Shown here: piece after piece, positions 11,321 to 25,988 of the stretch
How positions within the stretch are numbered: the first letter of the stretch is position 1
How the letters are laid out: each line of letters starts with the position of its first letter
From: Bacillus cereus
GTDB taxonomy: Bacteria > Bacillota > Bacilli > Bacillales > Bacillaceae_G
Assembly: GCF_002584535.1 (NCBI RefSeq)
Contig: NZ_NUOT01000025.1
Location: forward strand, 1-42,647
Direction: 5' to 3'
DNA length: 42,647 nucleotides
Made by a program: the position numbers and the translations under genes
The notes under the pieces: generated by a model
Seen by the model: only the letters and a program-made list of their open reading frames with translations
Database searches by the model: none
What the model was told of the DNA's origin: nothing

Positions 11321-12325
11321 CTACTTCTTAATAACGCTTTCGGCAATTTTTGTATTGACGAGCGCCTCATGTGGAACCTCTTTTTGTAATTCCCCAGCCT
11401 CTTTCATAATGACTTGAAGTTGCTTCCATTCTTCCGCATCTAATAATGGATTCGTTGCGTAGGAATGTTGCTTTTTGTAACGTTCAATGACCTTCAGCGT
11501 AATGTCTTGTGAAGTATCTTTGAAAAGAGGTGTAACAGTTTTTGCGATTTCTTCTGGGCTATGTGTATCTACCCATTGCTGTGCTTTATATAATGCACGT
11601 GTGAATTTCTCCGCAGCTACTTTATCTTTCTTTAAAAAGCTTTCCTTTGCCATAAATGTTGTGTAAGGAACAGTTCCGGATTCAGTACCGAAAGAAGCGA
11701 CGATATAGCCCTTTCCTTCTTTTTCTAAAATACTTGCAGTTGGTTCAAAGAGCTGCACAAATTCACCTGTACCAGACGCGAAGGCATTTGCAATATTGGC
11801 AAACTCAACATTTTGAATTAAATTTGTATCTTTGTGCGGATCAATACCATTTTTCTTTAAAACGTATTCCCCAACCATTTGCGGCATACCGCCTTTACGT
11901 TGACCAAGGAACGTAACACCCTTTACATCGTTCCAATTAAAGGAGCCTAACTTTTTACGTGAAACTAAAAATGTACCATCAGTTTGCGTGAGCTGTGCAA
12001 AGTTAATAACTGGATCTTTTGCCCCTTGCTGGTGAACATAAATGGATGTTTCAGAGCCCACAAGTGCAATATCAATTCCGCCAGATAATAAGGCTGTCAT
12101 TGTTTTATCGCCACCAGCTGTCGTTTGCAGGTCAATATCTAATCCTTCTTCTTTAAAAAATCCTTTTTCAATGCCAACATATAGCGGTGCATAGAAGAGA
12201 GAGTGTGTAACTTCACCAATGCGAATCTTTTTTGTCTGCTGCTTCGCGTCATCCTTTTTATTACACGCTACAAACGTAAAAACAGTAAGTACAAATATAC
12301 AAAAAACAGCTATGAATTTTTTCAA
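11321..12325 (-). CDS. ytlA: ABC importer substrate-binding lipoprotein YtlA
   Basis: Solute-binding protein of 334 residues in the NMT1/THI5-like (SsuA-type) fold. The N-terminus LKKFIAVFCIFVLTVFTFVAC is a lipoprotein signal with the acylated Cys in FVAC. The body starts with KIRIGEVTHSLFYAPLYVGIEKGFFKEEGL, typical of this fold, and contains TTAGGDKTMTALLSGGIDIALVG. The start is TTG 12325, nine bases after AGGAGG; the longer frame to 12475 has no site. The ligand is not determined; relatives bind sulfonates, nitrate or thiamine-pyrimidine precursors. I saw no TPP riboswitch in the 120-bp leader, so a thiamine role is not supported here. Confidence 0.88.
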   Translation of the reverse strand: MKKFIAVFCIFVLTVFTFVACNKKDDAKQQTKKIRIGEVTHSLFYAPLYVGIEKGFFKEEGLDIDLQTTAGGDKTMTALLSGGIDIALVGSETSIYVHQQGAKDPVINFAQLTQTDGTFLVSRKKLGSFNWNDVKGVTFLGQRKGGMPQMVGEYVLKKNGIDPHKDTNLIQNVEFANIANAFASGTGEFVQLFEPTASILEKEGKGYIVASFGTESGTVPYTTFMAKESFLKKDKVAAEKFTRALYKAQQWVDTHSPEEIAKTVTPLFKDTSQDITLKVIERYKKQHSYATNPLLDAEEWKQLQVIMKEAGELQKEVPHEALVNTKIAESVIKK

Positions 12326-12445
12326 AATATGACACCTCCTAGAAATGAATCTACTGCCATAATATGTAGGTAAGTGCCTAGATGTGAGTGGACATAGAAG
12401 GAATTTTTTGGATGGTAAAGAAGTACAAATATAAGGGGTGATAAA

Positions 12446-12742
12446 ATGAAGTATGAATATGATGATAGCATGCATTTACATCTTGATTATTTCGGAGAAG
12501 AGTACGATATGGAATCGATTGCTTATAAAAGAAAACATGAAGATGTGTGGGATGTCTTTTTCAACTTTTCATTTTATGGGATTTCGCCAAGCAAGATGCA
12601 AGAAAATGCGTATATGGATGAGTATGCAGGTTATCGCGTTTTTTCCGTACATGCCAATGATTTAAGCTGGGAATTTGGCAGTGCGAAGTTTGAAGAATGG
12701 CTTTTGGGGCACGGTATATTGGAAAAAGCTGTACAGAAATAG
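12446..12742 (+). CDS. hypothetical protein
   Basis: A 98-residue soluble protein, acidic and rich in aromatic residues (DYFGEEYDME, DVWDVFFNFSFYGISP, YAGYRVFSVHANDLSWEFG, FEEWLLGHGILEK). No membrane segment or known motif. AAGGGGTGA precedes the ATG at 12446. An alternative overlapping frame at 12453 has no ribosome site and looks like a shadow. It is divergent from ytlA and followed after one base by a small membrane-protein gene. Confidence 0.65.
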   Translation: MKYEYDDSMHLHLDYFGEEYDMESIAYKRKHEDVWDVFFNFSFYGISPSKMQENAYMDEYAGYRVFSVHANDLSWEFGSAKFEEWLLGHGILEKAVQK

Positions 12743-12743
12743 G

Positions 12744-12959
12744 ATGGTTGATTTTTTTGTTTTGTTATTTATATTTGTAGCGGGTTTTATGATTTTGCAG
12801 GTTCTTGTTTATCGATTTGCAAAGAAAAATATTCATAAATATAAAAGAATAAAGCTCGTTTATATGTGGCTGGATATGCATGTGAAGAAGGGTCCTACAT
12901 TAGATTTTGGTGATTATACACTTATATTGGTTATATGCATTCTATGGGGGATTTGGTAG
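12744..12959 (+). CDS. small membrane protein
   Basis: A 71-residue protein with two hydrophobic segments: residues ~3-20 (VDFFVLLFIFVAGFMILQVLV) and the C-terminus (YTLILVICILWGIW). A basic stretch lies between them (RFAKKNIHKYKRIK). The ATG starts one base after the TAG of the preceding gene. Only a weak AGG is upstream, so translation is probably coupled. No family recognised. A strong terminator follows. Confidence 0.5.
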   Translation: MVDFFVLLFIFVAGFMILQVLVYRFAKKNIHKYKRIKLVYMWLDMHVKKGPTLDFGDYTLILVICILWGIW

Positions 12960-12981
12960 AGTCTAGCGTGTCGGTTAATAC

Positions 12982-13027
12982 AAAAAGAGGTTATCCTAAA
13001 AGTAGTTTTTTAGGATAACCTCTTTTT
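12982..13027 (+). terminator. strong terminator
   Basis: AAAAAGAGGTTATCCTAAAA (12982-13001) pairs almost perfectly with TTTTAGGATAACCTCTTTTT. It ends the transcript of the two small genes upstream. Confidence 0.88.
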
Positions 13028-13185
13028 ATATATCCACTTTGATTTTTCAGCTACAAGTTACGGCCTCTGAAACAAAAGCGAATTCCCCCTCGTTTTCTCC
13101 CTCTGTTTTTATGGCATGAGGCAAGCCCATTTCTATCTATGAGCAGACGCTCTCTTTCACCCTAAAAAGGATTTATGCAGGTTTT
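13028..13185 (-). repeat. dispersed repeat, copy A (bcr-like)
   Basis: Read on the minus strand this ~158-bp block aligns with copies B (21586-21760) and C (22370-22528), and its 3' half with copy D (16832-16930). Shared blocks are GGGAGAAAACGAG, then TTTTGTTT, and a tail GAAAAATCAAAGTGGATATAT close to that of copy B. Length and position resemble the bcr repeats of the B. cereus group, but I cannot assign a numbered family. The rest of the 13186-13430 gap is AT-rich and holds the oatA ribosome site; I see no other feature. Confidence 0.7.
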
Positions 13186-13430
13186 TTAATTTGTATATTT
13201 GAATTTTTATTTATTTATAAAAGAAAGTTTATGCATGAAACTATTTTATGTAGTTAGATAACATGTTAAAATTCTAATTACTGTGCATGCAATTATAAAC
13301 AGTGAGAGTGTTTGTAATTTGGTTCTGTAATATTTTGACTAGGTTTATATGTTTTTAGAGGATTGATAGCGCTTTATATTACTGTTGTTATTGACGGAAT
13401 TTTTAGATAAATATAGGGAGGTGACTGTGA

Positions 13431-15239
13431 ATGCCTAAACCATTACAGAAAAATAGTCGCTATATGGTTGGATTGGACAGTCTAAGAGGTCTAGCCATAC
13501 TAGGTGTTATTTTATATCATATCAATTTTAATTGGATGCCTGGGGGGTTCCTAGGGGTTACTGTATTCTTTGTATTGTCGGGTTATTTAATTACGGATAT
13601 TCTCGCTATAGAATGGAAGAGAAATAAGAGAATTGACTTGAAGAATTTCTGGTTGCGTAGGGCAAGAAGATTGCTTCCAGGAATGTTTGTCATGCTTGTA
13701 GTTGTTTTAGCATGGATTACAATTTTTCATAGCTCTTTGCTAGGAAAGATGCGAGGAGATTCACTAGCAGCTTTATTATACTTCAGTAACTGGTGGTATA
13801 TTTATCACAAATTATCATACTTTGATAGTTTTAACCAACTGTCCCCGTTGAATCATTTTTGGTCGTTAGCAGTTGAAGAACAGTTCTATGTAGTCTGGCC
13901 ATTTATTATTAGCCTGGCATTTCGTTACATAAAACAGAAATCACGTATCATTTTATTTATTGTTTTAGGGGCAGCTGCTTCTGCATTAGCGATGGCTATT
14001 CTGTATGAACCAGGAGTTGATCCAAGCAGAATTTATTACGGTACTGATACGAGGGCTTTCTCCTTATTAATTGGAGCGGCACTTGCTTTAATTTGGCCAA
14101 GCAGTAGACTTGCGAATAAAATTATTCCAAAGGCACGTCTTATTCTTGATGTAGTTGGAGGAATTGCTCTTATCGTCATCCTCGTTATGTTTTGGAAAAC
14201 GAATCAATATGATCCGTTTTTATATCAAGGAGGAATGGTCCTTTTATCAATCGCTACAGCATTGCTAGTAGCGAACCTTGCTCATCCAGCTAGCCGAATC
14301 GCTCTATTTTTAAGGTTTAGACCATTACGCTGGATGGGTGTACGATCGTATGGGATATATCTTTGGCATTATCCGATTATCGCATTGACGACTCCGAAGG
14401 TACATGCTGGAGAGTTTTCACTTACAAGAGCAATTCTTCAATTTGTACTTATTATAGTTGTGGCACAAATTTCATGGAAGTTTATTGAAAATCCAATCAG
14501 ACAAGGGGCACTCCGGAACATTCGATCTAAGAACTGGAAAATAAGAAACTTAGCATTAAGTGGTAAGTTAGCTATAGTAGGTGCATTATTAATTTCTTCG
14601 ATAGCTGTTTTTGGATTATCAACAGCTAGTAAAGCAAAGGAGAATTCTCAAAAAGATAAGGTAGAGTCGGTACAAGCGGAACCGGCGAAACACCCAGTTG
14701 CAGTTCAGGAAAAATCAGCTGAGGAGCCGCCTCAAAATAAAGAACAACAAGAAGCTAATACGCCGCCTAAAGATCCTCTAACAGTTACAGCTGTAGGTGA
14801 TTCCATTATGATTGATATCGCTCCGTATTTGAAAAATGCATTTCCTAATATTGTAATTGATGCGAAGGTTGGTCGACAGTTGTCTAAAGCAATTCCTGTT
14901 GTAGAACAGCTAAAAAATCAGGGGAATTTAGGAAATCATGTTATCGTTGGATTAGGTACAAATGGAGCGTTTACTAAGGATCAATTAGTATCATTAGTAC
15001 AATTGATTGGGAATGAACGTAAAATTGTATTAATCAATACGAGGGTACCACGTCCATGGGAATCATTAGTGAATGAGAAATTAAAAGAGGTAGCATCTGA
15101 GTATAAAAATGTGACGTTAGTCGATTGGTATACAGCAAGTGCTGGAAATAAGGCATATTTTGAACCAGATGGTGTACATTTAACGAAAGCAGGTGCAGAA
15201 GCATATGCTGCGCTTGTAGCAAAAGCGGTGAATCAATAA
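13431..15239 (+). CDS. oatA: peptidoglycan O-acetyltransferase-like protein (acyltransferase 3 + SGNH)
   Basis: A 602-residue, two-domain membrane enzyme. Residues ~10-375 form an acyltransferase-3 domain with about 10-11 membrane helices, beginning LDSLRGLAILGVILYHI (conserved Arg and His) and containing RRARRLLPG and SLAVEEQFYVVWP. A Lys/Glu/Pro-rich linker (~400-445) leads to an extracytoplasmic SGNH esterase domain: block I VGDSIM, block III GLGTNG, block V DGVHLTKAG with the Asp-x-x-His pair. This matches OatA, which acetylates MurNAc O-6 and gives lysozyme resistance. B. cereus-group genomes carry several paralogues, so the exact substrate is uncertain. GGGAGGTGA precedes the ATG. Confidence 0.85.
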   Translation: MPKPLQKNSRYMVGLDSLRGLAILGVILYHINFNWMPGGFLGVTVFFVLSGYLITDILAIEWKRNKRIDLKNFWLRRARRLLPGMFVMLVVVLAWITIFHSSLLGKMRGDSLAALLYFSNWWYIYHKLSYFDSFNQLSPLNHFWSLAVEEQFYVVWPFIISLAFRYIKQKSRIILFIVLGAAASALAMAILYEPGVDPSRIYYGTDTRAFSLLIGAALALIWPSSRLANKIIPKARLILDVVGGIALIVILVMFWKTNQYDPFLYQGGMVLLSIATALLVANLAHPASRIALFLRFRPLRWMGVRSYGIYLWHYPIIALTTPKVHAGEFSLTRAILQFVLIIVVAQISWKFIENPIRQGALRNIRSKNWKIRNLALSGKLAIVGALLISSIAVFGLSTASKAKENSQKDKVESVQAEPAKHPVAVQEKSAEEPPQNKEQQEANTPPKDPLTVTAVGDSIMIDIAPYLKNAFPNIVIDAKVGRQLSKAIPVVEQLKNQGNLGNHVIVGLGTNGAFTKDQLVSLVQLIGNERKIVLINTRVPRPWESLVNEKLKEVASEYKNVTLVDWYTASAGNKAYFEPDGVHLTKAGAEAYAALVAKAVNQ

Positions 15240-15245
15240 TTTGAT

Positions 15246-15284
15246 TTGCATCACATTTTGACATAACTTCAAAGTGTGATGCAA
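15246..15284 (+). other. hairpin just after oatA
   Basis: TTGCATCACATTTTGA (15246-15261) pairs with TCAAAGTGTGATGCAA (15269-15284), 16 bp with one G-U. No T tract follows, so it is not a simple terminator. It may protect the 3' end or bind a protein. Confidence 0.5.
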
Positions 15285-15299
15285 TAGATTGATTGAAAA

Positions 15300-15343
15300 C
15301 AAAAGAGAACTTGTAGAGATGCTACAAGTTCTCTTTTGACTTA
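15300..15343 (+). terminator. terminator of oatA
   Basis: CAAAAGAGAACTTGTAG (15300-15316) pairs perfectly with CTACAAGTTCTCTTTTG (15322-15338) around a five-base loop. The remaining 15344-15613 is AT-rich (runs such as ATTATAATAAATATTGATAATAATATAG) and should hold the kinase promoter; I cannot place it firmly. Confidence 0.85.
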
Positions 15344-15613
15344 TATTTCATAACGGGGTAATCAGACAAAATAGCTCAAACACAAAGAACCGGGGAGTTC
15401 TCTTTACAGTTAACCTGACAAGTTCAGTATATAACACATAATAACGTTTTTAAGTACATATTATTGAAAATTATGTGAATTATCAAATTCGTGAATTAGG
15501 TTAAAATTTTCTGCATTATTAGATATTATTTTGGTCAAACACTACTATCATTTATTATAATAAATATTGATAATAATATAGTGAAAGTATATGGGATTTG
15601 GGGAAGTGTTAAA

Positions 15614-16813
15614 GTGAAAGAAAACTTTATCTCATTTCAAGAAGAAAAGAAAAATGCTCGACTCTTTTTATGGGTATTGAATATTGTATGGGGTATATAT
15701 GAAACAGCTTATTCTGTTATGCTAGGAGATTCTGAACTACTAATAAGATTAAAGGTTCAAGTTCCAACGCTTTTGTATGGAGCTTGCTTAATAGCATACA
15801 GTATGTATCTAGTAAACAAGGAACAGTCATATCGTATTAAGTATATATATTTATTAGCTTATATGCTTTCGGAGATTTTCAATTTGTACTGGTATGCAAC
15901 TCACAATAAAGTAGCATTTGATGGTGGGAATATACTTGAATTTGTTTTTATTTTATTTGTGCCAATTTTTATGAGTAAACGGTACTTGAAGTGGTTATTT
16001 TTAGTTATTATGGGTAAATATAGTGCACTTTTGATCCTGGGGAAAAAAACAGCATTTATGCAGTTGGTTATGTATAGTCTCTTATTATTTGTAGCCTATC
16101 TCCTATTGAATCGATTTTTACAGTACCTTTCTACTGTAAACAGTGTGATGATAGAAAAACGAGAGTCCGAAAAGCTCGCGGTTATTGGGAAAATGGCAGC
16201 GTCTGTTGGACATGAAATTAAAAATCCACTTTCCTCATTAAAAGGATTTACACAATTGCAGAAAGAGAAATATGCGGATGATAAGGTGTATGAACATATG
16301 ATTGATGAGATTGAACACATAAATAATATGATAAGTGAACTGATGGCGATGGCAACTTGTAAGCCTTCTACATATAGTAGTCATTTAATAGAAGAAATTG
16401 TATCAAAAGCGATGAAAGAAATGAGTGCAGAAATAAACAAAAAACAGCTGTATCTCACTTATGATGTTGCACCTGATCAAATAAAAATAGAGTGTGATAA
16501 TCGTAAATTAAAAGGAGTATTTCTATATATAATAAAGAATGCGATTGAAGCGATGGGACATGGGGGAACACTTTGGATAGATATAAAGAAGCGAAACAAG
16601 GATGATGTAATAGTAAGTATTGTAGATAATGGGTGTGGCATAGAGGAGGAAGATTTAAATCGTATAACAGAGGCCTTCTATACAACAAAAAAAGATGGCA
16701 TAGGTTTAGGGCTTACTGTTGCTTGCAAAATTATTGAAGAACATAATGGGGAAATACATATTACGAGTAAAAGAAATGTAGGAACGAAAGTAGACATTAT
16801 TTTACCTATATAA
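15614..16813 (+). CDS. membrane sensor histidine kinase (intact)
   Basis: A 399-residue orphan kinase. The first ~175 residues hold five to six membrane helices with almost no extracellular domain. HisKA follows with the H-box GHEIKNPLSSLKGFTQLQ (His200), then HATPase_c: N-box IIKNAIEAM, G1 VDNGCGIEE, F-box ITEAFYTT and G2 GIGLGLTVA. No response regulator is adjacent. The H-box type and membrane plan resemble the sporulation kinases that feed Spo0F, which is inference. I place the start at GTG 15614, eight bases after GGGGAAG. An in-frame GTG at 15581 would add 11 residues but has no site. Confidence 0.88.
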   Translation: MKENFISFQEEKKNARLFLWVLNIVWGIYETAYSVMLGDSELLIRLKVQVPTLLYGACLIAYSMYLVNKEQSYRIKYIYLLAYMLSEIFNLYWYATHNKVAFDGGNILEFVFILFVPIFMSKRYLKWLFLVIMGKYSALLILGKKTAFMQLVMYSLLLFVAYLLLNRFLQYLSTVNSVMIEKRESEKLAVIGKMAASVGHEIKNPLSSLKGFTQLQKEKYADDKVYEHMIDEIEHINNMISELMAMATCKPSTYSSHLIEEIVSKAMKEMSAEINKKQLYLTYDVAPDQIKIECDNRKLKGVFLYIIKNAIEAMGHGGTLWIDIKKRNKDDVIVSIVDNGCGIEEEDLNRITEAFYTTKKDGIGLGLTVACKIIEEHNGEIHITSKRNVGTKVDIILPI

Positions 16814-16831
16814 GAATAAGTTGGAAAATCG

Positions 16832-16930
16832 ACATATAATCTTTCCAAGGAGAGAAAACGAGTACAGGCCATCTTCTGTTCTTTATAGCAGAGACTTATA
16901 TGTTAAAAAATCAAAATAGATTTATATAGA
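16832..16930 (+). repeat. dispersed repeat, copy D (3' half only)
   Basis: CCAAGGAGAGAAAACGAG, then TTATATGTTAAAAAATCAAAATAG, correspond in order to the second half of repeats B and C. The first half is absent or unrecognisable. It lies in the 164-bp spacer between the two kinase genes. Confidence 0.5.
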
Positions 16931-16977
16931 AGGAAAGATTTGTGAAGTATGTGTATTGTGAATAGAGGAGTTACTAC

Positions 16978-18198
16978 ATGGACAGTATTGATAGATTAAC
17001 AAGGGAACAGGTTCGAACGTTAAGGCTGTTTTTAAGTTTATTCATTGCTACTTTTTTTATTTATGATGTTGCATCTTATTATATTATGCCGAAGCTAGAA
17101 GGCGTAAATGAGGCCCCAATTGTAGAACAAGGTTTAGGGGTATGGTTGTATATTCTTACGGCTATATTGGTGCTTGTAGGAATATATGTGATGAGGCGAA
17201 AGAATCCATATGCTGTGAAATATATTATTTTCATAGGATATAATACATTAGATTTTATTCATAATTTTATCATTTACTATGGAACAGATTTAGAGTTTGA
17301 TGCAGGAAATATAGTGGAAGGATTTTTCTTTCTTTTTGCACCATTCTTTTTGAACAAGCGCTATTTTTGGTTAGTAGCAGGAGGAACAATAGTAAAGTAT
17401 GCCTTAATGGGAGTGGTTGTACATTCTTTTATTGTTCTCGTTCCTATCGTCCTTTGTAGCTTGTTTTCGATTATAGGATGGGTTATTTTATTGAGATTCC
17501 AAGCTTATATACGCACAATTGAAATGACACATAAGGAATTGCAACAGTCGGAGAAGATGGCTGTAATTGGCAGGATGGCAACAGTTATCGGTTTTAAAAT
17601 GCGTAATCCATTAATGCTTTTGAAAAGCTTTATTAGAGGGCAACACGAAAAGTATCCTGATGATAAAGTATATTGTGATATTATGGAGCAAGAAATTGAA
17701 AGAATCGATACAATTGCCACCGAACTTGTGGAGCTTGGGAATTCTAGGCCGATGGAATACAAGAATCATGATATAAAGGATATTCTTTCATACGTGGTAA
17801 GAATTATGGGACAGCCTGCTTCGGAACGAGGAATTAAAATACATACCATTTATAAAGGTGAATTGCCAAGTATAATATGTAATGAAAAACGTTTAAAACA
17901 GGTGTTTTTAAATGTAATAAAAAATGCGATTGAATCCATGCAAGATGGTGGAATAATTATCATTGAAGTTACATTAAAAGATGCAATGGTAATTCGAATC
18001 AAGGATGAGGGATGCGGCATACCGAAAGATAAAATTCCTAAACTGAGCGAAGCTTTTTATACAACGAAAGATGAAGGAACTGGTTTAGGATTAATGGTTA
18101 CATATAAGATTATTGAAGAACATCAGGGCAAGTTACAGTTTGAGAGTGAAGTGGGAGTTGGAACTACGGTTGAGATTGTGCTTCCAATTTCGCAATAA
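16978..18198 (+). CDS. degenerate sensor histidine kinase lacking the phosphoacceptor His
   Basis: A 406-residue paralogue of the preceding kinase, with the same membrane N-terminus (~180 residues, including GTDLEFDAGNIVEGFFFLFAPFF against ATHNKVAFDGGNILEFVFIL) and the same domain order. The H-box reads GFKMRNPLMLLKSF: the histidine is Phe206 (TTT, 17593-17595) and the usual acid is Lys207. His to Phe needs two base changes, so a read error is unlikely. The ATP-binding half is intact: NVIKNAIESM, DEGCGIPKD, EAFYTTKDEGTGLGL. It should bind ATP but cannot autophosphorylate at the normal site. Possible roles are heterodimer partner, phosphatase or inhibitor. GAGGAG precedes the ATG. Confidence 0.88.
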   Translation: MDSIDRLTREQVRTLRLFLSLFIATFFIYDVASYYIMPKLEGVNEAPIVEQGLGVWLYILTAILVLVGIYVMRRKNPYAVKYIIFIGYNTLDFIHNFIIYYGTDLEFDAGNIVEGFFFLFAPFFLNKRYFWLVAGGTIVKYALMGVVVHSFIVLVPIVLCSLFSIIGWVILLRFQAYIRTIEMTHKELQQSEKMAVIGRMATVIGFKMRNPLMLLKSFIRGQHEKYPDDKVYCDIMEQEIERIDTIATELVELGNSRPMEYKNHDIKDILSYVVRIMGQPASERGIKIHTIYKGELPSIICNEKRLKQVFLNVIKNAIESMQDGGIIIIEVTLKDAMVIRIKDEGCGIPKDKIPKLSEAFYTTKDEGTGLGLMVTYKIIEEHQGKLQFESEVGVGTTVEIVLPISQ

Positions 18199-18201
18199 AA
18201 T

Positions 18202-18243
18202 AAAAAGAGAAAATCCGTTCAATAAACGAATTTTCTCTTTTTT
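18202..18243 (+). terminator. terminator after the kinase pair
   Basis: AAAAAGAGAAAATCCGTT (18202-18219) pairs with AACGAATTTTCTCTTTTTT (18225-18243), with one mismatch, and ends in T residues. Confidence 0.85.
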
Positions 18244-18568
18244 GATGTAATAAGTTTTACATATTATTTGGGTTCTAGTAGCCCTTAACTTTTCAAGTTA
18301 GCGATTTGCATGAAGAAGGATTACTAACAGATTGCCTTAGGATTATATCATATAAAGATATGAAGGAATGATATGCAATATTTCATATTATAGCTTAGGC
18401 TAATATAGCCTATTGATAGGTAGATGTTTACATGAATACTCCCCCACTTAACTTCGTTTGAAGTAGGGGTACTCTTTCAGCAAAATCTGATAGAAAAAGG
18501 AAGTGATTATTTTTTTAGAAACCGCCAAGCATGAAGAAAAAAGGATTCTTAGTGGTACCTTTTTATAA
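18244..18568. other. gene-free spacer with several small hairpins
   Basis: No credible reading frame is present. The stretch holds short inverted repeats: TAACTTTTCAAGTTA near 18286-18300, TAGGCTAATATAGCCTA near 18397-18413, and the larger hairpin listed separately at 18436-18475. Together these could be the ends of a small non-autonomous IS200/IS605-type element, but I cannot define its borders. Confidence 0.4.
18436..18475 (+). repeat. IS200/IS605-like palindrome, copy 1
   Basis: CCCC (18442-18445) and ACTT (18446-18449) pair with AAGT (18461-18464) and GGGG (18466-18469), leaving one bulged A at 18465. The flanks are ACTC on the left and TACTCT on the right. Read in reverse, it has the same stem plan and bulge as the hairpin at 39424-39466. 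The shape recalls right-end hairpins of IS200/IS605 elements; no transposase is nearby. Confidence 0.45.
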
Positions 18569-18901
18569 TTAATCTCGCAGACCGAATCCAATGATTTTCT
18601 TCGTTTTCATATCAACAAACGCATCTACATTTCCAAGTTTGTAAGAACGATCAGATGGAAACGAAACACGATAGACCTCTTTTCCAATATAAGAGGAATC
18701 TTTGACAGAAGATATTCCAGCTTGCAACGTTTCTGTCGTAACTGTAGCATGCTTCCAGCCAGTGCTTATTTCTTCTTTCGCATGCTCAGATAATTGATTC
18801 CATACCGTTTTCTTTAATTCGTCCTTAGGAGTACCTTTACATGAGCTTAATAGAAAACAAGCAAGAACGAGGAGTGCGAAAGAAAGTATTCGACCTCTCA
18901 T
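18569..18901 (-). CDS. small lipoprotein, unknown function
   Basis: A 110-residue protein with a clear lipoprotein signal (MRGRILSFALLVLACFLLSSC, acylated Cys21). The small soluble domain that follows contains WKHATVTTETLQAG, VYRVSFPSDRSYKLGNVDAFVDMKTKKIIGFGLRD. The C-terminal pattern of a strand followed by D-KTKKIIG is PepSY/YcdC-like only in a general way; I do not assign a family. The ATG abuts the stop codon of the Nif3-like gene upstream (TAA then ATG), so the two are co-transcribed and probably translationally coupled. Confidence 0.7.
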   Translation of the reverse strand: MRGRILSFALLVLACFLLSSCKGTPKDELKKTVWNQLSEHAKEEISTGWKHATVTTETLQAGISSVKDSSYIGKEVYRVSFPSDRSYKLGNVDAFVDMKTKKIIGFGLRD

Positions 18902-19819
18902 TTAATACCACCATTTCTTCTGCGGGAGTAAAACAATATCCACATTAAAGTTTTCTATAAACCAATCACGCATCAAAGTTTTCTTTATTAAGTATTCAGA
19001 AGCTGAATGCGATACGCCGATAAGCGACATATTTGTTTCTTTCACATAATCCATAATTAATGAATATTTGTATTTGCCGTATTCATTATCGATATGACAA
19101 TGAATTTCCCCTGTAATATACGCCTCGGCGCCTTTTTCTTCTGCTTCTTTGAGAAGATCTACTTTATCACCGCAACCAGCGATAATCGCAATTTTTGTGA
19201 TAGATTCATGGTGTTTACCTTCAAAGTCTATGTACGGAACGTGGAAGAGTTCTTTTAGACGTTGTTCGAGGTTGCTTGTTGTTGTTTCATGCATTTCGCA
19301 AATGAGTCCACAGGGTATATCTTTTCCATCATAAGCAAATCCATCTACTATATTGGCCTCTAGAGCTTTAGCAATCGCAATGCTTGTTCCATATGTTTGA
19401 TGATGATCCATTGGAACGTGGCATGTATAAATAGAGAGTTCTTTTTCTTTGATAGTTTGTAAATCGTGCATTGGAATAGGTACAAATCCTCGTCCAGATT
19501 TTCCGAGTGGATCACCACATTCCATCACAAGAGGGTGATGCATAAAAAGTAAATCACCTGGCTTGGATTGTGAGATGAATTTTTCAAGAACATCATCTGT
19601 TGGAAAGACAGCTAAAAAGATTGTGTTTACAGTTTCAGCACCTTTTATCATAAGACCGTTAAAGGTATTTACAAAGTCTGCTTCAAAAAATTGTCGCCAA
19701 GGAAATTCGATTGGATCGTATACAGCTGGAATAAATCGACTAAAGGCACTGTCTTTTCCGTATTTTTTGATTTGAAATAAAGAATCTAGTGCATGTTGTA
19801 CTTCTTTTAAGGCTGGCAT
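18902..19819 (-). CDS. Nif3-like dinuclear metal-centre protein
   Basis: Cytosolic 305-residue member of the Nif3/DUF34 family. Metal ligands are visible in order: LFMHHPLV near residue 103, HVPMDH near residue 149, and SHSASEY towards the C-terminus, with GEIHCH close before it. Family members form hexamers with two metals; the reaction is not established, and links to GTP cyclohydrolase and metal insertion have been proposed. It is not the long YqfO form. ATG 19819 is chosen for its AAAGGAGGAG site; the longer frame to 19909 has none. Confidence 0.85.
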   Translation of the reverse strand: MPALKEVQHALDSLFQIKKYGKDSAFSRFIPAVYDPIEFPWRQFFEADFVNTFNGLMIKGAETVNTIFLAVFPTDDVLEKFISQSKPGDLLFMHHPLVMECGDPLGKSGRGFVPIPMHDLQTIKEKELSIYTCHVPMDHHQTYGTSIAIAKALEANIVDGFAYDGKDIPCGLICEMHETTTSNLEQRLKELFHVPYIDFEGKHHESITKIAIIAGCGDKVDLLKEAEEKGAEAYITGEIHCHIDNEYGKYKYSLIMDYVKETNMSLIGVSHSASEYLIKKTLMRDWFIENFNVDIVLLPQKKWWY

Positions 19820-19945
19820 AATCTCTCCTCCTTTATCACATTCATTGTATAGTAGTTGTAATTTTCTGTATATAACAAGTGGATAGAATTCACAAAAAGA
19901 ATGGTACAATATAAGAATTATGTATAGAAGTAGGAGGAAAGAGAA

Positions 19946-20269
19946 ATGAACGTGACTGTAACAGATGCAGCATATAAAAAGATTATGGATACGATTCCAA
20001 GTGAAACAAAGTTTATAAAATTATTTTATGATAATGAAGGGTGCGGCTGCGTGATGAGCGGGATTATCGACTTAGTGGCTGTATCAGAAAAAGATGAACG
20101 TGATGTCGATATTGAATCAAATAAATTACAATTCATTGCAGATCGAACAAAGCTTGTGTTTATGGATGATAAGCTTATTGTTGATTTACATGAATCAGGC
20201 GGGCATTTTCAACTGAAAAGTCCGAGCCAATTTTATAATCCAACTATGAAACTGCATATTCGAGTATAA
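19946..20269 (+). CDS. HesB/YqkB-like iron-sulfur biosynthesis-fold protein
   Basis: A 107-residue protein matching the HesB-like family in its small Bacillus form. It begins MNVTVTDAAYKKIMD, then a beta-rich core FIKLFYDNEGCGCVMSGIIDLV. The GCGC motif gives the only cysteines, so the distal CGC of A-type carriers is missing. Such proteins are annotated as iron-sulfur cluster biosynthesis proteins, but function in this subgroup is unproven. GTAGGAGGAAAG precedes the ATG. Divergent from the Nif3-like gene. Confidence 0.78.
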   Translation: MNVTVTDAAYKKIMDTIPSETKFIKLFYDNEGCGCVMSGIIDLVAVSEKDERDVDIESNKLQFIADRTKLVFMDDKLIVDLHESGGHFQLKSPSQFYNPTMKLHIRV

Positions 20270-20273
20270 TTTA

Positions 20274-20308
20274 TTAAAAAGGGGCAAATTGCATGCTCCT
20301 TTTTCTTA
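20274..20308 (+). terminator. terminator of the HesB-like gene
   Basis: AAAAAGGGGCA pairs with TGCTCCTTTTT around AATTGCA, with one bulge, followed by CTTATG. It lies five bases after the stop. Confidence 0.7.
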
Positions 20309-20381
20309 TGTAATTTTTCATGTAATGAAATGTACATATAATTGAATTTTCTGTATAATTCTCTGTGCGGAGGGGATACAT

Positions 20382-21287
20382 ATGAGAAGATGGGGGATTG
20401 AATTATTACTTTTAAGTGTGGTTATGATTTGGGGTATCAATTATACAATTGGAAAATACGGACTTGTAGAACTTACAGCAATTGAGTTTACTGCGCTCCG
20501 GATGATTGCAGCAGCACCGCTATTAGTAGTACTTACATTTTATATTGAAAAGTCATTGTACATGGAATTAAGGGATATACCAAGGCTCATTGTAGTTAGT
20601 GTTGTGGGAATCGTGCTGTATCAAACATTATTTATGGAAACTATAAAGTATACATCCGCTACGAATGCTTCTTTACTTATTTCTATTTCACCTATTTTTA
20701 CAACGGTGTTTGCAATTTTTCTTAGACAAGAGAAGTTTTCTTCGCGAAAATTAGTTGGCTCTATTATAGCTTGCATCGGTGCCTCCCTTGTTTTATTAGT
20801 AGGACATTCACTTGCTGGGTCTTTTTATGGAAATGGAATTGGACTCATTACATCGATATGCTGGGGGCTATATCCAGTTTTAGCTGGACCACTTATAAAA
20901 AAATATTCGGCACTTCGTGTGACTACATGGTCAGCAGTTGTTGGAGCAATTCCGCTTGTTATACTGAGCGGCCCACATGTTTTTTTGCTGCCATTCCAAA
21001 TTGAACAAGGGATGTCATGGTTTGCACTACTATATTCTATTTTCTTTGTAACGGTATTTGGTTTAGTCATTTGGTATGTCGGGGTTCAAAAAATTGGTGC
21101 TTCACATACGATGGTATATATGTACATTACACCGCTTGTTGCGGTTGTATTTGCGGCGGTATGGGCGAAAGAGCATATTTCGTTCCAACAGATGATTGGT
21201 GGTTGTATTATCTTTCTCGGCTTATGGTTTGTAAAGTCTGAAAAACTTGATGCACAGCATATCGCATCAGAATATATATCAAAATAG
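20382..21287 (+). CDS. EamA/DMT-family transporter
   Basis: Integral membrane transporter of 301 residues with ten predicted helices in two EamA repeats. The first starts LLLLSVVMIWGINYTIGKYGL and the second begins near ITSICWGLYPVLAGPLIKKYS (residue ~155). Charged residues sit in the loops, including the conserved FTALR after helix 1. Members export amino acids, nucleotides or drugs; the substrate here cannot be named. GGAGGGGA precedes the ATG. A likely promoter is TATAAT at 20354-20359 with TGTACA 17 bp upstream. Confidence 0.88.
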   Translation: MRRWGIELLLLSVVMIWGINYTIGKYGLVELTAIEFTALRMIAAAPLLVVLTFYIEKSLYMELRDIPRLIVVSVVGIVLYQTLFMETIKYTSATNASLLISISPIFTTVFAIFLRQEKFSSRKLVGSIIACIGASLVLLVGHSLAGSFYGNGIGLITSICWGLYPVLAGPLIKKYSALRVTTWSAVVGAIPLVILSGPHVFLLPFQIEQGMSWFALLYSIFFVTVFGLVIWYVGVQKIGASHTMVYMYITPLVAVVFAAVWAKEHISFQQMIGGCIIFLGLWFVKSEKLDAQHIASEYISK

Positions 21288-21323
21288 GAAAACAGATCAG
21301 TCATGATCTGCTTTCCTATTTTT
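21283..21323. terminator. terminator between convergent genes
   Basis: AATAGGAAAACAGATCA (from 21283) pairs with TGATCTGCTTTCCTATT (21304-21320), with one mismatch, followed by T residues. It overlaps the transporter stop and lies at the end of the convergent membrane-protein gene. Confidence 0.85.
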
Positions 21324-21537
21324 TTATTTTTGGTAAAAACATAAGGAATAAAATGGAAATGATAAGTGGGATAAAGTTGAGAAAAGGTATGCGGAATAGT
21401 GCAATAAGAATAATTCCGGAGAGAAGAACACCGAGGACAGCATAGAAGATACTATGTTCTTTTGTGTACCAATATAATGAGAGTCCTATAAGTGCAGGGA
21501 TAATGAGGTGAATGAGAGCCATTAAAAAATAAATCAT
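21316..21537 (-). CDS. small membrane protein
   Basis: A 73-residue protein that is hydrophobic almost throughout, with three predicted membrane helices (residues ~3-20, ~30-47, ~50-68) and a basic tail KIKK. A GGGGGCG site precedes the ATG. It converges on the EamA transporter and shares its terminator region. No family recognised. A frame overlapping it upstream on the same strand is a shadow through the repeat at 21586-21760. Confidence 0.6.
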   Translation of the reverse strand: MIYFLMALIHLIIPALIGLSLYWYTKEHSIFYAVLGVLLSGIILIALFRIPFLNFIPLIISILFLMFLPKIKK

Positions 21538-21585
21538 TAGACGCCCCCTTTATTTGTGTACTCATTACATACATATAAATTGAAA

Positions 21586-21760
21586 AACTGACATAAAACC
21601 TTTCTTTATAGGTGGGAGAGAGGATTTGGTCGAGCGGAGAAGTGGTAAGAACTTTTTTTGCCGCATGCCATGTGAGAACAGAAGGAGAAAACGAGCGGAG
21701 ATCTCTTTTTGTTTCCAAGGCCTTGGTTTATATGTTGGAAAATGAAAGTGGATATATCTA
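21586..21760 (+). repeat. dispersed repeat, copy B (bcr-like)
   Basis: The fullest copy (~175 bp). It contains GGGAGAGAGGAT, GAAGTGGT, GCATGCCATGTGAGAACA, GGAGAAAACGAGCGGAGAT, a perfect palindrome CCAAGGCCTTGG, and a tail GTGGATATAT. Copies A, C and D share these blocks in the same order. The remaining sequence to 21983 holds TATAAT (21866-21871), the inverted repeat at 21893-21921, and the next gene's ribosome site. Confidence 0.7.
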
Positions 21761-21892
21761 CATCATATCCATATTTTTGTAGATTGATATCACTTTTTTG
21801 TAAATCTATGAGAAATGTTTGAAAAAAAGTCACAAGTTGCGCCTGCTTCCAAACTAAAAATCTTGTATAATATTATTTCCAAAAAATATTTT

Positions 21893-21921
21893 AACAACAT
21901 AAGTGTAGTGTTTATGTTGTT
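21893..21921. promoter_or_regulatory. perfect inverted repeat in the leader of the AtpI-like gene
   Basis: AACAACATAA (21893-21902) and TTATGTTGTT (21912-21921) are perfect 10-bp arms around nine bases. They lie about 20 bp after a TATAAT box and 62 bp before the start codon. This could be an operator or an RNA hairpin. Confidence 0.4.
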
Positions 21922-21983
21922 TATTTTCGAATGTAACAGATAAAGTCTGATGATATGTAAATAAGATGATAAAGGAGAACTGC

Positions 21984-22355
21984 ATGATTAGTATGTCATT
22001 AAGGTCATTTAAAATCCAAATGTATTATTTGCTAGGTGCAATGCTATTAGGTTGGGCGATGACACCTTTTTCTGCACACTTTTTAGGTGTAGGGATTGGT
22101 TTACTCGTTAGTATGTATTGCGTTTGGATTTTAGGAAGACGTATTGAAAAGCTTGGAGATAGTATTGTAAAAAAGAGTAAAGCACCGACACTTGGTATGG
22201 TTAATCGTTTTGCAGCAGCGATACTCGGCGCAATTATTATGTATGAAATTGAACATCATATGGTTATGTGGGCATTTGCTGTTGGAATTATGGGTGGTTA
22301 TTTCTTGATCGTTATTAATTTAGGCTATTACAGCATGAAAGATGCGAAGAAATAG
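21984..22355 (+). CDS. AtpI-like (ATP synthase subunit I family) membrane protein
   Basis: A 123-residue protein with four predicted membrane helices. It matches the AtpI pattern: paired N-terminal helices, VSMYCVWILGRRIEKLGDSI after helix 2, then LGMVNRFAAAILGAI and a last helix pair. AtpI helps assemble the F-type ATPase c-ring or handles Mg/Ca, but no atp genes are nearby, so this is an isolated member. I chose ATG 21984 because AAAGGAGA lies seven bases upstream; the frame opens at 21966 with the ribosome site inside it. Confidence 0.72.
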   Translation: MISMSLRSFKIQMYYLLGAMLLGWAMTPFSAHFLGVGIGLLVSMYCVWILGRRIEKLGDSIVKKSKAPTLGMVNRFAAAILGAIIMYEIEHHMVMWAFAVGIMGGYFLIVINLGYYSMKDAKK

Positions 22356-22369
22356 GTAAATACAGAACC

Positions 22370-22528
22370 TTTTCTTTTTTAGGTAAGAGAGAGGATTCGA
22401 TGGTGAATAGAAGTGGTCAGAGAATTTTTTTACTCTATGTCATGTGAAAACAAATGGAGAAAATGAGTCGAGAATCTGTATTTGTTTGCCAAGCAACGAT
22501 TTATATGTTAGAAAATCAAGATATATAG
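22370..22528 (+). repeat. dispersed repeat, copy C (bcr-like)
   Basis: It shares GAGAGAGGATT, GAAGTGGT, ATGTCATGTGAAAACA, TGGAGAAAATGAG, TTTGTTTGCCAAG and TTATATGTTAGAAAATCAAG with copy B, at the same spacing. It sits directly 3' of the AtpI-like gene and ends at a terminator. Bases 22564-22682 hold no recognisable feature. Confidence 0.7.
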
Positions 22529-22563
22529 AAAGAAGCTTACGTTTTAGCGTAAGCTTCTTTTTT
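22529..22563. terminator. bidirectional terminator between the AtpI-like gene and pckA
   Basis: AAAGAAGCTTACG (22529-22541) pairs perfectly with CGTAAGCTTCTTT (22548-22560) and runs into T residues. It may also serve pckA, which ends at 22683 on the other strand. Confidence 0.8.
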
Positions 22564-22682
22564 ATTGTAAGTATGTGTAACCTATAAAGTCGCATGGGTT
22601 TTGTCGGTGAGTACGCGAACTTTTTAGGCTACACTATACTTATTCATATGAGTAAAGGGGTATTCAAACAGTAAAGGTTAAA

Positions 22683-24269
22683 TTAAGCGATTGGACCGCC
22701 TAATTTGATAATGCTTTCGGAAACGTTCTCGAACTTTTTGAAGTTTTCTTTGAACTTATCTGCAAGCTCGATTGCTTTTGCTTTGTAAGCTGCTTTATCA
22801 GCCCATGTTTGTTCAGGCATTAATACTTCATCAGGTACACCTGGTACATGAAGTGGCACTTCAAGACCGAAGATGTCATGTTTCGCTGTTTCAGCGTTAT
22901 CAAGCTCGCCGTTTAATGCTGATTGTACCATTGCACGAGTGTAACCTAAGTTCATACGTTTTCCAACGCCGTATTCGCCACCAGTCCAGCCAGTGTTTAC
23001 TAAGAATACTTTCGCATCATGTTTCTCGATCTTTTCACCAAGCATTTCAGCATAGCGAGATGCATCAAGTGGCAAGAATGGAGAACCGAAGCAAGTTGAG
23101 AACGTTGCTTGCGGAGATGTTACACCGCGCTCAGTTCCAGCTAGTTTACTAGTGTAACCGCTTAAGAAATGGTACATAGCTTGCTCTTTATTTAACTTAC
23201 TGATTGGAGGCAATACTCCAGATGCATCAGCAGTTAAGAAAATAATTGTATTTGGATGTCCTGCAACACTTGGTACTACGATATTATCAATCGCATCAAT
23301 TGGGTATGCAGCACGTGTATTTTCTGTTAATGTAGTATCATTATAATCTGCAATACGTGTTTGATTATCAATTACAACGTTCTCAAGCACTGATCCAAAT
23401 GTAATTGCATCAAAAATTTGTGGCTCTTTTTCATGAGAAAGGTTAATACATTTTGCGTAGCAACCGCCTTCAATATTGAATACGCCGTTATCAGACCAAC
23501 CGTGCTCATCATCACCAATTAATTTACGGTGTGGGTCAGCAGATAATGTTGTTTTACCTGTTCCAGATAAACCGAAGAATAGAGCAACATCACCTTCTTC
23601 ACCTACGTTTGCAGAACAATGCATAGATAAAATATCTTGTTCCGGAAGTAAGAAGTTCATAATAGAGAAGATTGATTTTTTCATCTCTCCAGCGTATTCA
23701 GTACCACCGATTAATACGATGCGTTTTTCAAACGAAACCATAATAAATGCTTCAGAGTTTGTGCCGTCAATCTCTGGATCTGCTTTAAAGCTTGGTGCAG
23801 AAACAATTGTGAACTCAGCTTCATGATTTGCTAATTCGTCTTCAGTTGGACGAATAAATAATTGATGTACGAATAAATTGTGCCATGCATATTCATTAAC
23901 AACTTGTAATGGAAGGCGATAGTTACGATCAGCGCCAGCGAATCCTTTAAATACGAATAATTCTTCTTTTTCTTTTAAGTATTCTAATACTTTTGTATAT
24001 AATTTATTAAAATGTTCTTCAGAAATCGGTTGATTTACAGATCCCCAAGCGATCTTATCTGCAACCGATGCTTCTTTCACAATAAATTTATCTTTAGGAG
24101 AACGTCCTGTATATTTTCCTGTAGAAGCAGATACAGCGCCAGTAGAAGTCAATTTCCCTTCATTTCTCATTAGAACTTTTTCTACTAATTGTGGAACGCT
24201 TAGTTGAACCTGTGCATTGCTTCCGTTCAGTAATTCGTGTAATCCAATTTGGACATTCACAGTACTCAT
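22683..24269 (-). CDS. pckA: phosphoenolpyruvate carboxykinase (ATP)
   Basis: Cytosolic gluconeogenic enzyme converting oxaloacetate and ATP to PEP, CO2 and ADP. Seen: [11 protein letters not shown] near residue 51 (substrate arginine), [14 protein letters not shown] near 233 (kinase-1a P-loop), [22 protein letters not shown] (metal and nucleotide region) and NTRAAYPI with [11 protein letters not shown] beyond. Its 528 residues match the bacterial ATP form. The ATG has AAGGATGG upstream. Divergent from metK, with 519 bp between the two start codons. Repression by glucose is expected from the family, but I did not identify a CcpN or CcpA site with confidence. Confidence 0.97.
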
Positions 24270-24498: not shown

Positions 24499-24694
24499 CT
24501 CTTATCCCGAGCTGGCGGAGGGACAGGCCCGATGAAGCCCGGCAACCTCACTTGTAACGGTAAATACAAGTGAATAGGTGCTAAAACCTGTGCGAGGCGA
24601 ACGGTCTCGAACGATAAGAGCGAAGGGCAAAAAGCAGTATGCAAGTAGCAAATTAAACCTTTCCTCTATGTTAAGTGGGAAAGGTTTTTCTTTT
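24499..24694 (+). ncRNA. SAM-I (S-box) riboswitch and terminator in the metK leader
   Basis: The aptamer runs 24499-24620. P1 forms from CTCTTATC (24499-24506) and GATAAGAG (24613-24620). The conserved core contains GCTGGCGGAGGGACAGGCCC, then GATGAAGCCCGGCAACC and a P3 arm CACTTGTA...TACAAGTG. The expression platform is a terminator, AAACCTTTCC (24655-24664) with GGAAAGGTTT (24678-24687), then TTCTTTT. High SAM should stabilise the aptamer and allow termination, lowering metK expression. About 95 further leader bases separate the terminator from metK. Confidence 0.96.
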
Positions 24695-24788: not shown

Positions 24789-25988
24789 ATGACAAAACAA
24801 CGTCATCTGTTCACATCTGAGTCTGTAACTGAAGGACATCCAGATAAAATTTGTGACCAAATTTCTGATTCAATTTTAGACGCGATCTTAGCAAAAGACG
24901 CAAACGCACGTGTAGCTTGTGAAACAACAGTAACAACTGGTTTAGTATTGGTAGCGGGGGAGATTACAACTTCTACTTATGTAGATATTCCAAAAATCGT
25001 TCGTGAAACAATTCAAGGTATCGGTTACACTCGTGCAAAGTATGGATTCGATGCAGAAACTTGTGCAGTTTTAACATCTATTGATGAGCAGTCTGCTGAC
25101 ATCGCTATGGGTGTTGACCAAGCGTTAGAAGCGCGTGAAGGTCAAATGACTGACGCTGAGATTGAGGCAATTGGTGCAGGGGACCAAGGTTTAATGTTTG
25201 GTTTTGCATGTAATGAAACAAAAGAATTAATGCCACTTCCAATCTCGCTTGCTCACAAATTAGCTCGTCGTTTAACGGAAGTTCGTAAAGATGAAACATT
25301 AGAATATTTACGTCCAGACGGTAAAACGCAAGTTACAGTTGAGTATGATGAAAATGGTAAACCAGTACGCATCGATACAATTGTAATTTCTACACAGCAT
25401 CACCCGGAAGCTACATGGGAACAAATCGATCGCGACTTAAAAGAGCACGTAATCAAAGCTGTAGTACCAGCAGAATTAATGGATGAAGAAACGAAATTCT
25501 TCATTAACCCAACTGGTCGTTTCGTAATCGGTGGACCACAAGGGGATGCTGGTTTAACAGGACGTAAAATTATCGTTGATACTTACGGTGGATACGCTCG
25601 TCATGGCGGCGGTGCATTCTCTGGTAAAGATGCAACAAAAGTTGACCGTTCTGCAGCATACGCAGCTCGTTATGTTGCGAAAAACATCGTTGCAGCTGGT
25701 CTTGCTGAAAAAGCAGAAGTACAACTTGCATACGCAATTGGTGTAGCACAACCAGTATCAATTTCAGTTGATACATTTGGCACTGGTAAAGTATCTGAAG
25801 AAGTACTAGTAGAACTAGTTCGTAACAACTTCGATCTTCGCCCAGCTGGTATCATCAAAATGCTAGACTTACGTCGCCCAATTTACAAACAAACAGCAGC
25901 TTACGGCCACTTCGGACGTACTGATGTAGATCTTTCATGGGAACGTACAGACAAAGCAGCAACTTTAAAAGAGCAAGCTAGTCTATAA
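24789..25988 (+). CDS. metK: S-adenosylmethionine synthetase MetK
   Basis: Makes S-adenosylmethionine from methionine and ATP with release of phosphate and pyrophosphate. Seen: the N-terminal [18 protein letters not shown] (methionine and ATP site), [12 protein letters not shown] near residue 119 (signature hexapeptide GAGDQG), and [22 protein letters not shown] near 270 (phosphate loop). At 399 residues it is full length. A GGGAGGT site precedes the ATG. Codon use is visibly biased to highly expressed choices compared with neighbours. Controlled by the SAM riboswitch upstream. Confidence 0.98.

What the first reader, a model, noticed from the sequence alone, without database searches (positions are those of the whole stretch)
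16978..18198. Histidine kinase paralogue that has lost its phosphoacceptor histidine
Two paralogous membrane kinases lie in tandem. The first has GHEIKNPL (His200). The second reads GFKMRNPL at the same place: Phe206, codon TTT at 17593-17595, with Lys207 replacing the usual acid. His to Phe takes two base changes, and the reading frame and ATP-binding boxes (NAIESM, DEGCGI, GTGLGL) are intact, so this looks like selected loss rather than decay. Inference: it may form heterodimers with its neighbour, act as a phosphatase or inhibitor in the sporulation phosphorelay, or signal through ATP binding alone.
Basis: partly seen in the sequence, partly recalled or inferred. Interest (0 to 1): 0.72.

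Follow-up and report, generated by a model that had tools for sequence, protein, structure and literature searches.

The report
Tandem kinases with complementary broken halves
Two neighbouring bacterial sensor kinases have each lost a different half of the same active site, one the residue that receives phosphate and the other a residue needed to transfer it, which suggests that they may work only as a mixed pair.

Summary
In detail: q2 (16978-18198) reads GFKMRNPL, Phe206/Lys207 replacing the phosphoacceptor His and its acid, in an intact frame. Upstream q1 (15614-16813) keeps His200-Glu201 but has Tyr305 for the first N-box Asn and Gly301 for the Gln four residues before. In 152 distinct full-length MASE12-kinase relatives, His, Glu, Gln and Asn are each 152 of 152. 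In E. coli CpxA the aligned Asn356 contacts the Glu beside the His; Asn356Tyr cut reporter output from 13,523 to 38 units (PMC3904827). Constraint looks reciprocal: q2's ATP-binding domain diverges at family level (1.04x), its phosphotransfer face 2.59x; q1's face 1.02x. q2 also lost the Spo0F-specificity residues, which q1 keeps. Best explanation: a heterodimer in which q2's catalytic domain phosphorylates q1 His200, which feeds Spo0F; moderate confidence (0.42). Nearest known: split CheA3/CheA4, engineered H-minus/N-minus mixes, pseudokinase DivL.

The parts
15614..16813 (+). q1: MASE12 membrane histidine kinase, 399 aa from GTG 15614 (410 aa if GTG 15581); keeps His200-Glu201, lost the first N-box Asn
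15638..16108 (+). MASE12 sensor domain of q1 (48.5 bits, cut-off 27)
16211..16216 (+). q1 His200-Glu201, phosphoacceptor and adjacent acid; H-E-x-x-N intact
16514..16516 (+). q1 Gly301, where 152 of 152 relatives have Gln
16526..16528 (+). q1 Tyr305, where 152 of 152 relatives have Asn; aligned with CpxA Asn356
16814..16977 (+). 164-nt gap between q1 and q2; no terminator-like site listed in it, so one transcript is possible
16978..18198 (+). q2: MASE12 histidine-kinase paralogue without phosphoacceptor, 406 aa
17005..17490 (+). MASE12 sensor domain of q2 (81.1 bits)
17593..17598 (+). q2 Phe206-Lys207, where 152 of 152 relatives have His-Glu
17626..17640 (+). q2 Ser217, Arg220, Gly221: response-regulator specificity face changed (Gly 152/152, Gln 152/152, Leu 148/152 in relatives)
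17881..18192 (+). q2 HATPase_c domain; both N-box Asn (312, 316), G1, F and G2 motifs intact
15300..15338 (+). terminator-like hairpin after the upstream acyltransferase gene
18202..18242 (-). terminator-like hairpin just after q2, listed on the minus strand; that it also ends the q1-q2 transcript is my reading

Best explanation
q1 and q2 are the two halves of one heterodimeric histidine kinase. q2 supplies a complete ATP-binding catalytic domain but cannot be phosphorylated; q1 supplies His200-Glu201 and a response-regulator docking face but has a damaged catalytic domain. In a q1-q2 dimer held by their homologous MASE12 and dimerisation helices, q2's catalytic domain would phosphorylate q1 His200 in trans, and q1 would pass the phosphate to a response regulator, most likely Spo0F. 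Output would then need both proteins, so the pair could act as a coincidence detector for two MASE12 signals. Shown here: the residues, their invariance in relatives, the reciprocal pattern of constraint, adjacency. Taken from the literature: the effect of the same Asn-to-Tyr change in CpxA; rescue in mixed dimers of one other kinase. Inferred: heterodimerisation, trans mechanism, Spo0F as target.
For: (1) In 152 distinct full-length relatives His206, Glu207, Gly217, Gln220, Gln308, Asn312 and Asn316 (q2 numbers) are each 152 of 152; q2 breaks the first four and keeps the rest, q1 keeps the first four and breaks Gln308 and Asn312. (2) Positions at least 98% conserved: q2 departs at 4 of 10 on the phosphotransfer face and 0 of 21 in the catalytic domain; q1 at 0 of 10 and 2 of 21. 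(3) Divergence relative to the family: q2 face 2.59x, catalytic domain 1.04x; q1 face 1.02x although q1 is 1.19 to 1.58x elsewhere. (4) CpxA Asn356 bridges from the catalytic domain to the Glu next to the His, and Asn356Tyr lowered a reporter from 13,523 to 38 Miller units (PMC3904827 section 9); q1 Tyr305 aligns with Asn356. (5) In RT-HK, His-minus and Asn-minus mutants are each inactive and active when mixed (PMC12148442 passages). (6) Spo0F-specificity residues TxGFQL of sporulation kinases (PMC6136694): q1 SSGFQL, q2 MLSFRG; SSGFQL is the commonest set in relatives, 65 of 152. (7) 95 of 152 relatives have a second MASE12 protein (HD-GYP type) directly downstream, so adjacent MASE12 partners are common in the family.
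Against: Close relatives were not found, so neither change is known to be fixed. By count alone q1's catalytic domain is not unusual: 21 of 152 ordinary members have at least one departure at positions 98% conserved in the others, maximum 2, the same number as q1; the case rests on which residues changed. q1 face versus catalytic domain is not significant (p 0.53 to 1.0), and the q2-versus-q1 contrast of departures is borderline (p 0.048 to 0.067). q1 is a very long branch (2.29 against a median of 0.34) and also departs at invariant Arg242 and Ile246 of the second DHp helix, so partial decay of q1 is possible. The CpxA result is a reporter assay in vivo, not an autophosphorylation assay. If this family works in cis, a mixed dimer would not be rescued; the DHp loop that decides this (PMC3904827) was not resolved here. 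All three other tandem pairs found have both copies intact.
Confidence: 0.42

Rival explanations
1. q1 remains an active kinase (Tyr305 tolerated) and q2 is a regulatory pseudokinase that modulates it by heterodimerising or by taking up its signal, as DivL does to CckA or as SkiA is proposed to do to BA2291.
For: DivL has Tyr in place of His, keeps the N, G1, F and G2 boxes, and yet its catalytic domain is dispensable (PMC4211667 passages), so an intact catalytic domain does not prove catalysis. [quoted passage not shown] A sensor-domain homologue, SkiA, lowers sporulation in a BA2291-dependent way (PMC5862856 passages). q1 keeps the second N-box Asn and the other catalytic motifs.
Against: The first N-box Asn is 152 of 152 in relatives, and the same substitution was kinase-deficient in CpxA. 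Unlike DivL, which keeps a conserved response-regulator patch, q2 lost that face.
Confidence: 0.2
2. q1 is a kinase-dead phosphatase of Spo0F~P (H-E-x-x-N kept, catalytic Asn lost) and q2 gates it; the pair only drains the phosphorelay.
For: q1 keeps HEIKN, which fits the phosphatase motif HE/DxxN/T (PMC3591291 section 10), and the specificity residues SSGFQL. That N-box mutants of other kinases can keep phosphatase activity is recalled, not from a call.
Against: It does not explain why q2 keeps all 21 strongly conserved catalytic-domain positions, the Glu-contacting Asn among them.
Confidence: 0.2
3. Both genes are relics in slow decay, or one or both changes are private to this strain.
For: Both are long branches (q1 2.29, q2 1.18, median 0.34); no close relative could be compared.
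Against: Both frames are open over about 400 codons; q2's catalytic domain (1.04x) and q1's phosphotransfer face (1.02x) are as constrained as in the family. q2 has five changes clustered within 16 residues and q1 two changes four residues apart, which is more than one private mutation each.
Confidence: 0.13

Closest known systems
Split kinase CheA3/CheA4 of Rhodobacter sphaeroides (PMC3591291 passages and Discussion; PMC6829392 passages)
   Same: Phosphoacceptor on one protein and catalytic activity on the other; neither autophosphorylates alone, the mixture does.
   Different: There, whole domains are missing; here both proteins are full length and the split is by substitutions in a HisKA-type membrane kinase. 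The biochemistry here is untested.
Engineered mixed dimers of His-minus and Asn-minus mutants (RT-HK H152A/N256A, PMC12148442 passages)
   Same: Same logic: one subunit lacks the His, the other a catalytic Asn.
   Different: Engineered; its Asn is described as the conserved Mg-chelating Asn, whereas q1 lost the first N-box Asn (the CpxA Asn356 position).
Pseudo-histidine kinase DivL (PMC4211667 passages)
   Same: Aromatic residue at the phosphoacceptor site; remaining boxes intact.
   Different: DivL keeps a response-regulator binding patch; q2 lost it and stands beside a complementary paralogue.
E. coli CpxA Asn356Tyr (PMC3904827 section 9)
   Same: Same substitution at the same N-box position as q1 Tyr305.
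   Different: A laboratory mutant of a homodimeric kinase.
Sporulation kinases KinA-KinE (PMC6136694 passages)
   Same: Orphan location; specificity residues [S/T]xGFQL in q1; NCBIfam KinD hit 164 bits for q1 and 158 for q2.
   Different: Far below the KinD cut-off of 775 bits; MASE12 sensor; q2 lacks the acceptor and the specificity residues.

Membership tests
HisKA histidine kinase (q2) | HisKA domain with phosphoacceptor His | tested here: not met
   HisKA 11.9 bits against cut-off 26.9; Phe206
HisKA histidine kinase (q2) | HATPase_c with N, G1, F, G2 motifs | tested here: met
   91.4 bits; 0 of 21 strongly conserved positions changed
HisKA histidine kinase (q1) | HisKA domain with phosphoacceptor His and adjacent acid | tested here: met
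   34.2 bits; His200-Glu201
HisKA histidine kinase (q1) | First N-box Asn | tested here: not met
   Tyr305; Asn in 152 of 152 relatives
MASE12 sensor proteins | MASE12 domain above Pfam cut-off | tested here: met
   q1 48.5 and q2 81.1 bits, cut-off 27
Split kinase (CheA3/CheA4 type) | One partner lacks the phosphoacceptor | tested here: met
   q2 Phe206
Split kinase (CheA3/CheA4 type) | The other partner lacks the catalytic domain | tested here: not met
   q1 has HATPase_c at 84 bits; only invariant residues within it are changed, so it is not filed as a member
Split kinase (CheA3/CheA4 type) | Neither partner autophosphorylates alone, the mixture does | not testable with these tools
   needs biochemistry
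DivL-type pseudo-histidine kinase | Non-His residue at the acceptor site with other boxes kept | tested here: met
DivL-type pseudo-histidine kinase | Conserved response-regulator binding patch | tested here: not met
   Gly217Ser, Gln220Arg, Leu221Gly relative to the family
Sporulation (Spo0F) kinase | Orphan: no response-regulator gene adjacent | tested here: met
   18 further window ORFs scanned of 46 listed, among them most of the neighbours; no response-regulator match
Sporulation (Spo0F) kinase | Specificity residues like TxGFQL | tested here: met
   met for q1 (SSGFQL), not met for q2 (MLSFRG); positions set with the Bacillus spizizenii row, which reads TAGFQL
Sporulation (Spo0F) kinase | Phosphotransfer to Spo0F | not testable with these tools
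   needs biochemistry

The most novel reading that the evidence does not exclude
A natural, obligate heterodimeric HisKA-type kinase made by reciprocal point loss in tandem paralogues: each has lost its side of the same His-Glu/Asn contact, so that only the mixed dimer carries one complete active site, which makes a developmental phosphorelay input depend on two MASE12 sensors at once.
Probability: 0.36. Interest if true: 0.85.

Novelty: new variant of a known kind. Interest (0 to 1): 0.6.

Why it matters
Histidine kinases are nearly always treated as homodimers, and pseudokinases are read one protein at a time. A pair that has divided one active site between two full-length paralogues would be a clear case of duplication followed by complementary loss, would change how 'dead' kinases are annotated (check the neighbour's N-box as well as the H-box), and would give a directly testable coincidence detector. 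Modelling in PMC3591291 (Discussion) suggests that bifunctional split kinases can give switch-like, bistable responses, which would suit a sporulation decision; that link to this pair is inference.

Tried and rejected
Rejected: that the downstream partners in relatives are also dead kinases. The hits lacking His in L001 and others are MASE12-HD-GYP proteins (MASE12 178 bits, HD_5 129 bits in L001), not kinases; they account for the 7 gaps among 123 rows (my reading of the ELKDP rows). Rejected: q2 as a conventional Spo0F phosphatase (motif and specificity residues lost).

Led nowhere: the first motif regular expression was wrong and matched nothing; q2 in viral contigs gave no relative; plasmids gave only the kinase domain, 72 records all under 60% identity, 0 covering 80% of the query; the window stretch 12000-24000 matched one plasmid record, pckA only. 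Promoter-like sites were no more than chance, 20 against 18.8. A dN/dS test was not run: relatives are at most 47% identical to q2. A search for close relatives through pckA-metK DNA gave at best 75% over the full query and up to 82% in partial matches, 308 of 328 genomes scored. Structure models show ordinary folds: q2 mean pLDDT 79.3, best solved match ZraS 9jfj, KinB 3d36 rank 12, DivL 4q20 rank 50; q1 75.5, not searched. Such models cannot tell a dead from a live site.

Limits of the counts: 152 comes from 285 ORF hits, 167 of them full length, 154 distinct with the two window proteins. Not read: rows G023, G157, G357, and at least G425, G469, G485, G533, G534 (two with in-frame stops, two partial), and whatever lies beyond the printed list. 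These relatives come mostly from one family of the order, so they are not independent.

Literature: ten searches of one open-access library; in their listings I saw no description of a natural tandem HisKA pair with reciprocal loss. Papers were seen as passages, except PMC3904827 section 9 and the PMC3591291 Discussion, read whole. The main B. anthracis sporulation-kinase paper (PMC1251614) is not held and was not seen.

Full report
What is there. Two paralogous genes lie in tandem on the + strand. q1 runs from GTG 15614 (better Shine-Dalgarno than GTG 15581) to 16813, 399 aa; q2 from 16978 to 18198, 406 aa. Both have a MASE12 membrane domain and a HATPase_c domain above the Pfam cut-offs; HisKA passes in q1 (34.2 bits) and not in q2 (11.9, cut-off 26.9). 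They are 36% identical over 400 columns. The gap is 164 nt with no terminator-like site listed in it; terminator-like hairpins lie at 15300-15338 (+) and 18242-18202 (listed on the minus strand). No response regulator was found in 18 further ORFs scanned of 46 listed.

Relatives. No collection gave a close relative: 80 named loci, 397 genomes of the order of a B. spizizenii genome, 24 and 193 genomes of two families, plasmids and viral contigs. The best is 47% identical to q2 and 39% to q1. pckA-metK DNA of the window reached at best 75% over the full query, partial matches up to 82%, in 308 scored genomes of 328.

The family pattern. From the fetched loci, 285 ORFs match the family profile, 167 over its full length, and 152 are distinct and not from the window, at 149 loci. 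In q2 numbering, His206, Glu207, Asn210, Pro211, Gly217, Gln220, Gln308, Asn312 and Asn316 are each 152 of 152. q2 has Phe, Lys, Ser and Arg at 206, 207, 217 and 220, and Gly at 221 (Leu in 148, Phe in 4), and keeps Asn210 and Pro211. It keeps Gln308, Asn312 and Asn316. q1 is the mirror image: it keeps His, Glu, Gly, Gln and Leu but has Gly for Gln308 (its residue 301) and Tyr for Asn312 (its residue 305), with Asn316 (its 309) kept. A wider set of other kinases gave Asn at the 312 column in 117 of 117 aligned rows.

Statistics, with results both ways. At positions at least 98% conserved, q2 departs at 4 of 10 on the phosphotransfer face against 0 of 21 in the catalytic domain (Fisher 0.0067; 0.0047 to 0.0076 over four thresholds). 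q1 departs at 0 of 10 and 2 of 21 (p 1.0; 0.53 to 1.0 over thresholds). The contrast of departures between q2 and q1 is borderline (0.048 to 0.067). Leave-one-out, 10 of 152 ordinary members have a face departure (never more than 1) and 21 of 152 a catalytic-domain departure (at most 2). So q2's four are outside the family range, while q1's two are not unusual in number, only in which residues they are. A first version with 29 relatives gave 5 of 11 against 0 of 31 for q2 and 0 of 11 against 3 of 31 for q1. Mean divergence relative to within-family divergence: q2 MASE12 1.10, face 2.59, rest of DHp 1.40, catalytic domain 1.04; q1 1.27, 1.02, 1.58 and 1.19. Thus q2's catalytic domain and q1's phosphotransfer face are the parts held at family level.

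History. In a tree of 75 rows q1 (2.29) and q2 (1.18) have long branches (median 0.34). Holding them as one clade gives a slightly better likelihood (2.24 units; p-AU 0.53), so a lineage-specific duplication is allowed but not shown. Three other loci carry tandem MASE12 kinases, and all six copies keep His, Glu and Asn. In 95 of 152 relatives the next gene on the same strand is a MASE12-HD-GYP protein (the L001 example was verified), so a neighbour with the same sensor is common; in the window that place is taken by q2.

Mechanism. In the CpxA Michaelis complex, Glu249 beside His248 is hydrogen-bonded to Asn356 of the catalytic domain across the interface, and Asn356Tyr was found as a strongly kinase-deficient allele (reporter 13,523 to 38; wild type 582) (PMC3904827 section 9). 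The CpxA sequence aligned here puts Asn356 opposite q1 Tyr305 and Asn360 opposite q1 Asn309. So q1 keeps the DHp side of this contact and lost the catalytic side; q2 keeps the catalytic side and lost the DHp side. In RT-HK, His-minus and Asn-minus mutants regain activity when mixed if the kinase acts in trans (PMC12148442 passages). The simplest reading is that q2 phosphorylates q1 His200. q1 also keeps residues like those with which sporulation kinases recognise Spo0F (TxGFQL, PMC6136694 passages): SSGFQL, the commonest set in relatives, 65 of 152. q2 has MLSFRG. Trans action, heterodimerisation and Spo0F as target are inferences; that the related kinase NtrB acts in trans is recalled.

Rivals. 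An intact catalytic domain does not prove catalysis: DivL keeps its boxes and yet its catalytic domain is dispensable (PMC4211667 passages). q1 might tolerate Tyr305, or be a phosphatase only, since HEIKN fits the phosphatase motif (PMC3591291). Decay or private mutation cannot be excluded without close relatives. I give 0.42, 0.20, 0.20 and 0.13, the rest to things not thought of.

Structure. AlphaFold2 models of q2 (mean pLDDT 79.3) and q1 (75.5) are ordinary, with the catalytic domains mostly near or above 90 outside the ATP lid; q2's nearest solved structures are ZraS (9jfj), then others including KinB (3d36) and DivL (4q20). This shows fold, not activity.

Novelty. Split kinases by domain loss are known (CheA3/CheA4; PMC3591291 and PMC6829392 passages), and so are single pseudokinases. 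Ten searches of one open-access library showed no natural tandem HisKA pair with reciprocal loss in their listings. I call it a new variant of a known kind, with the function untested.

Noticed in passing
L001 7393-8553 and 95 of 152 relatives: A MASE12-HD-GYP gene directly follows the MASE12 kinase in many relatives (median distance between open frames 161 nt), which hints at a link between this kinase and cyclic di-GMP turnover.
   Followed up: partly
L093 (G335), L159/L179 (G545), L170/L178 (G544): Independent tandem MASE12 kinase pairs with both copies intact at His, Glu and Asn; useful controls for what a non-split tandem pair looks like.
   Followed up: partly
window 24499-24620: SAM riboswitch (72.3 bits) between divergent pckA (22683-24269, minus) and metK (24789-25988, plus).
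   Followed up: no
window 16821-16848: Inverted repeat TTGGAAA-14 nt-TTTCCAA around a TATAAT in the gap before q2; could be an operator or chance.
   Followed up: no
G007 hit (L089), G485 and G534: Some relatives of the kinase are flagged with in-frame stops, so decay of this family does occur in places.
   Followed up: no
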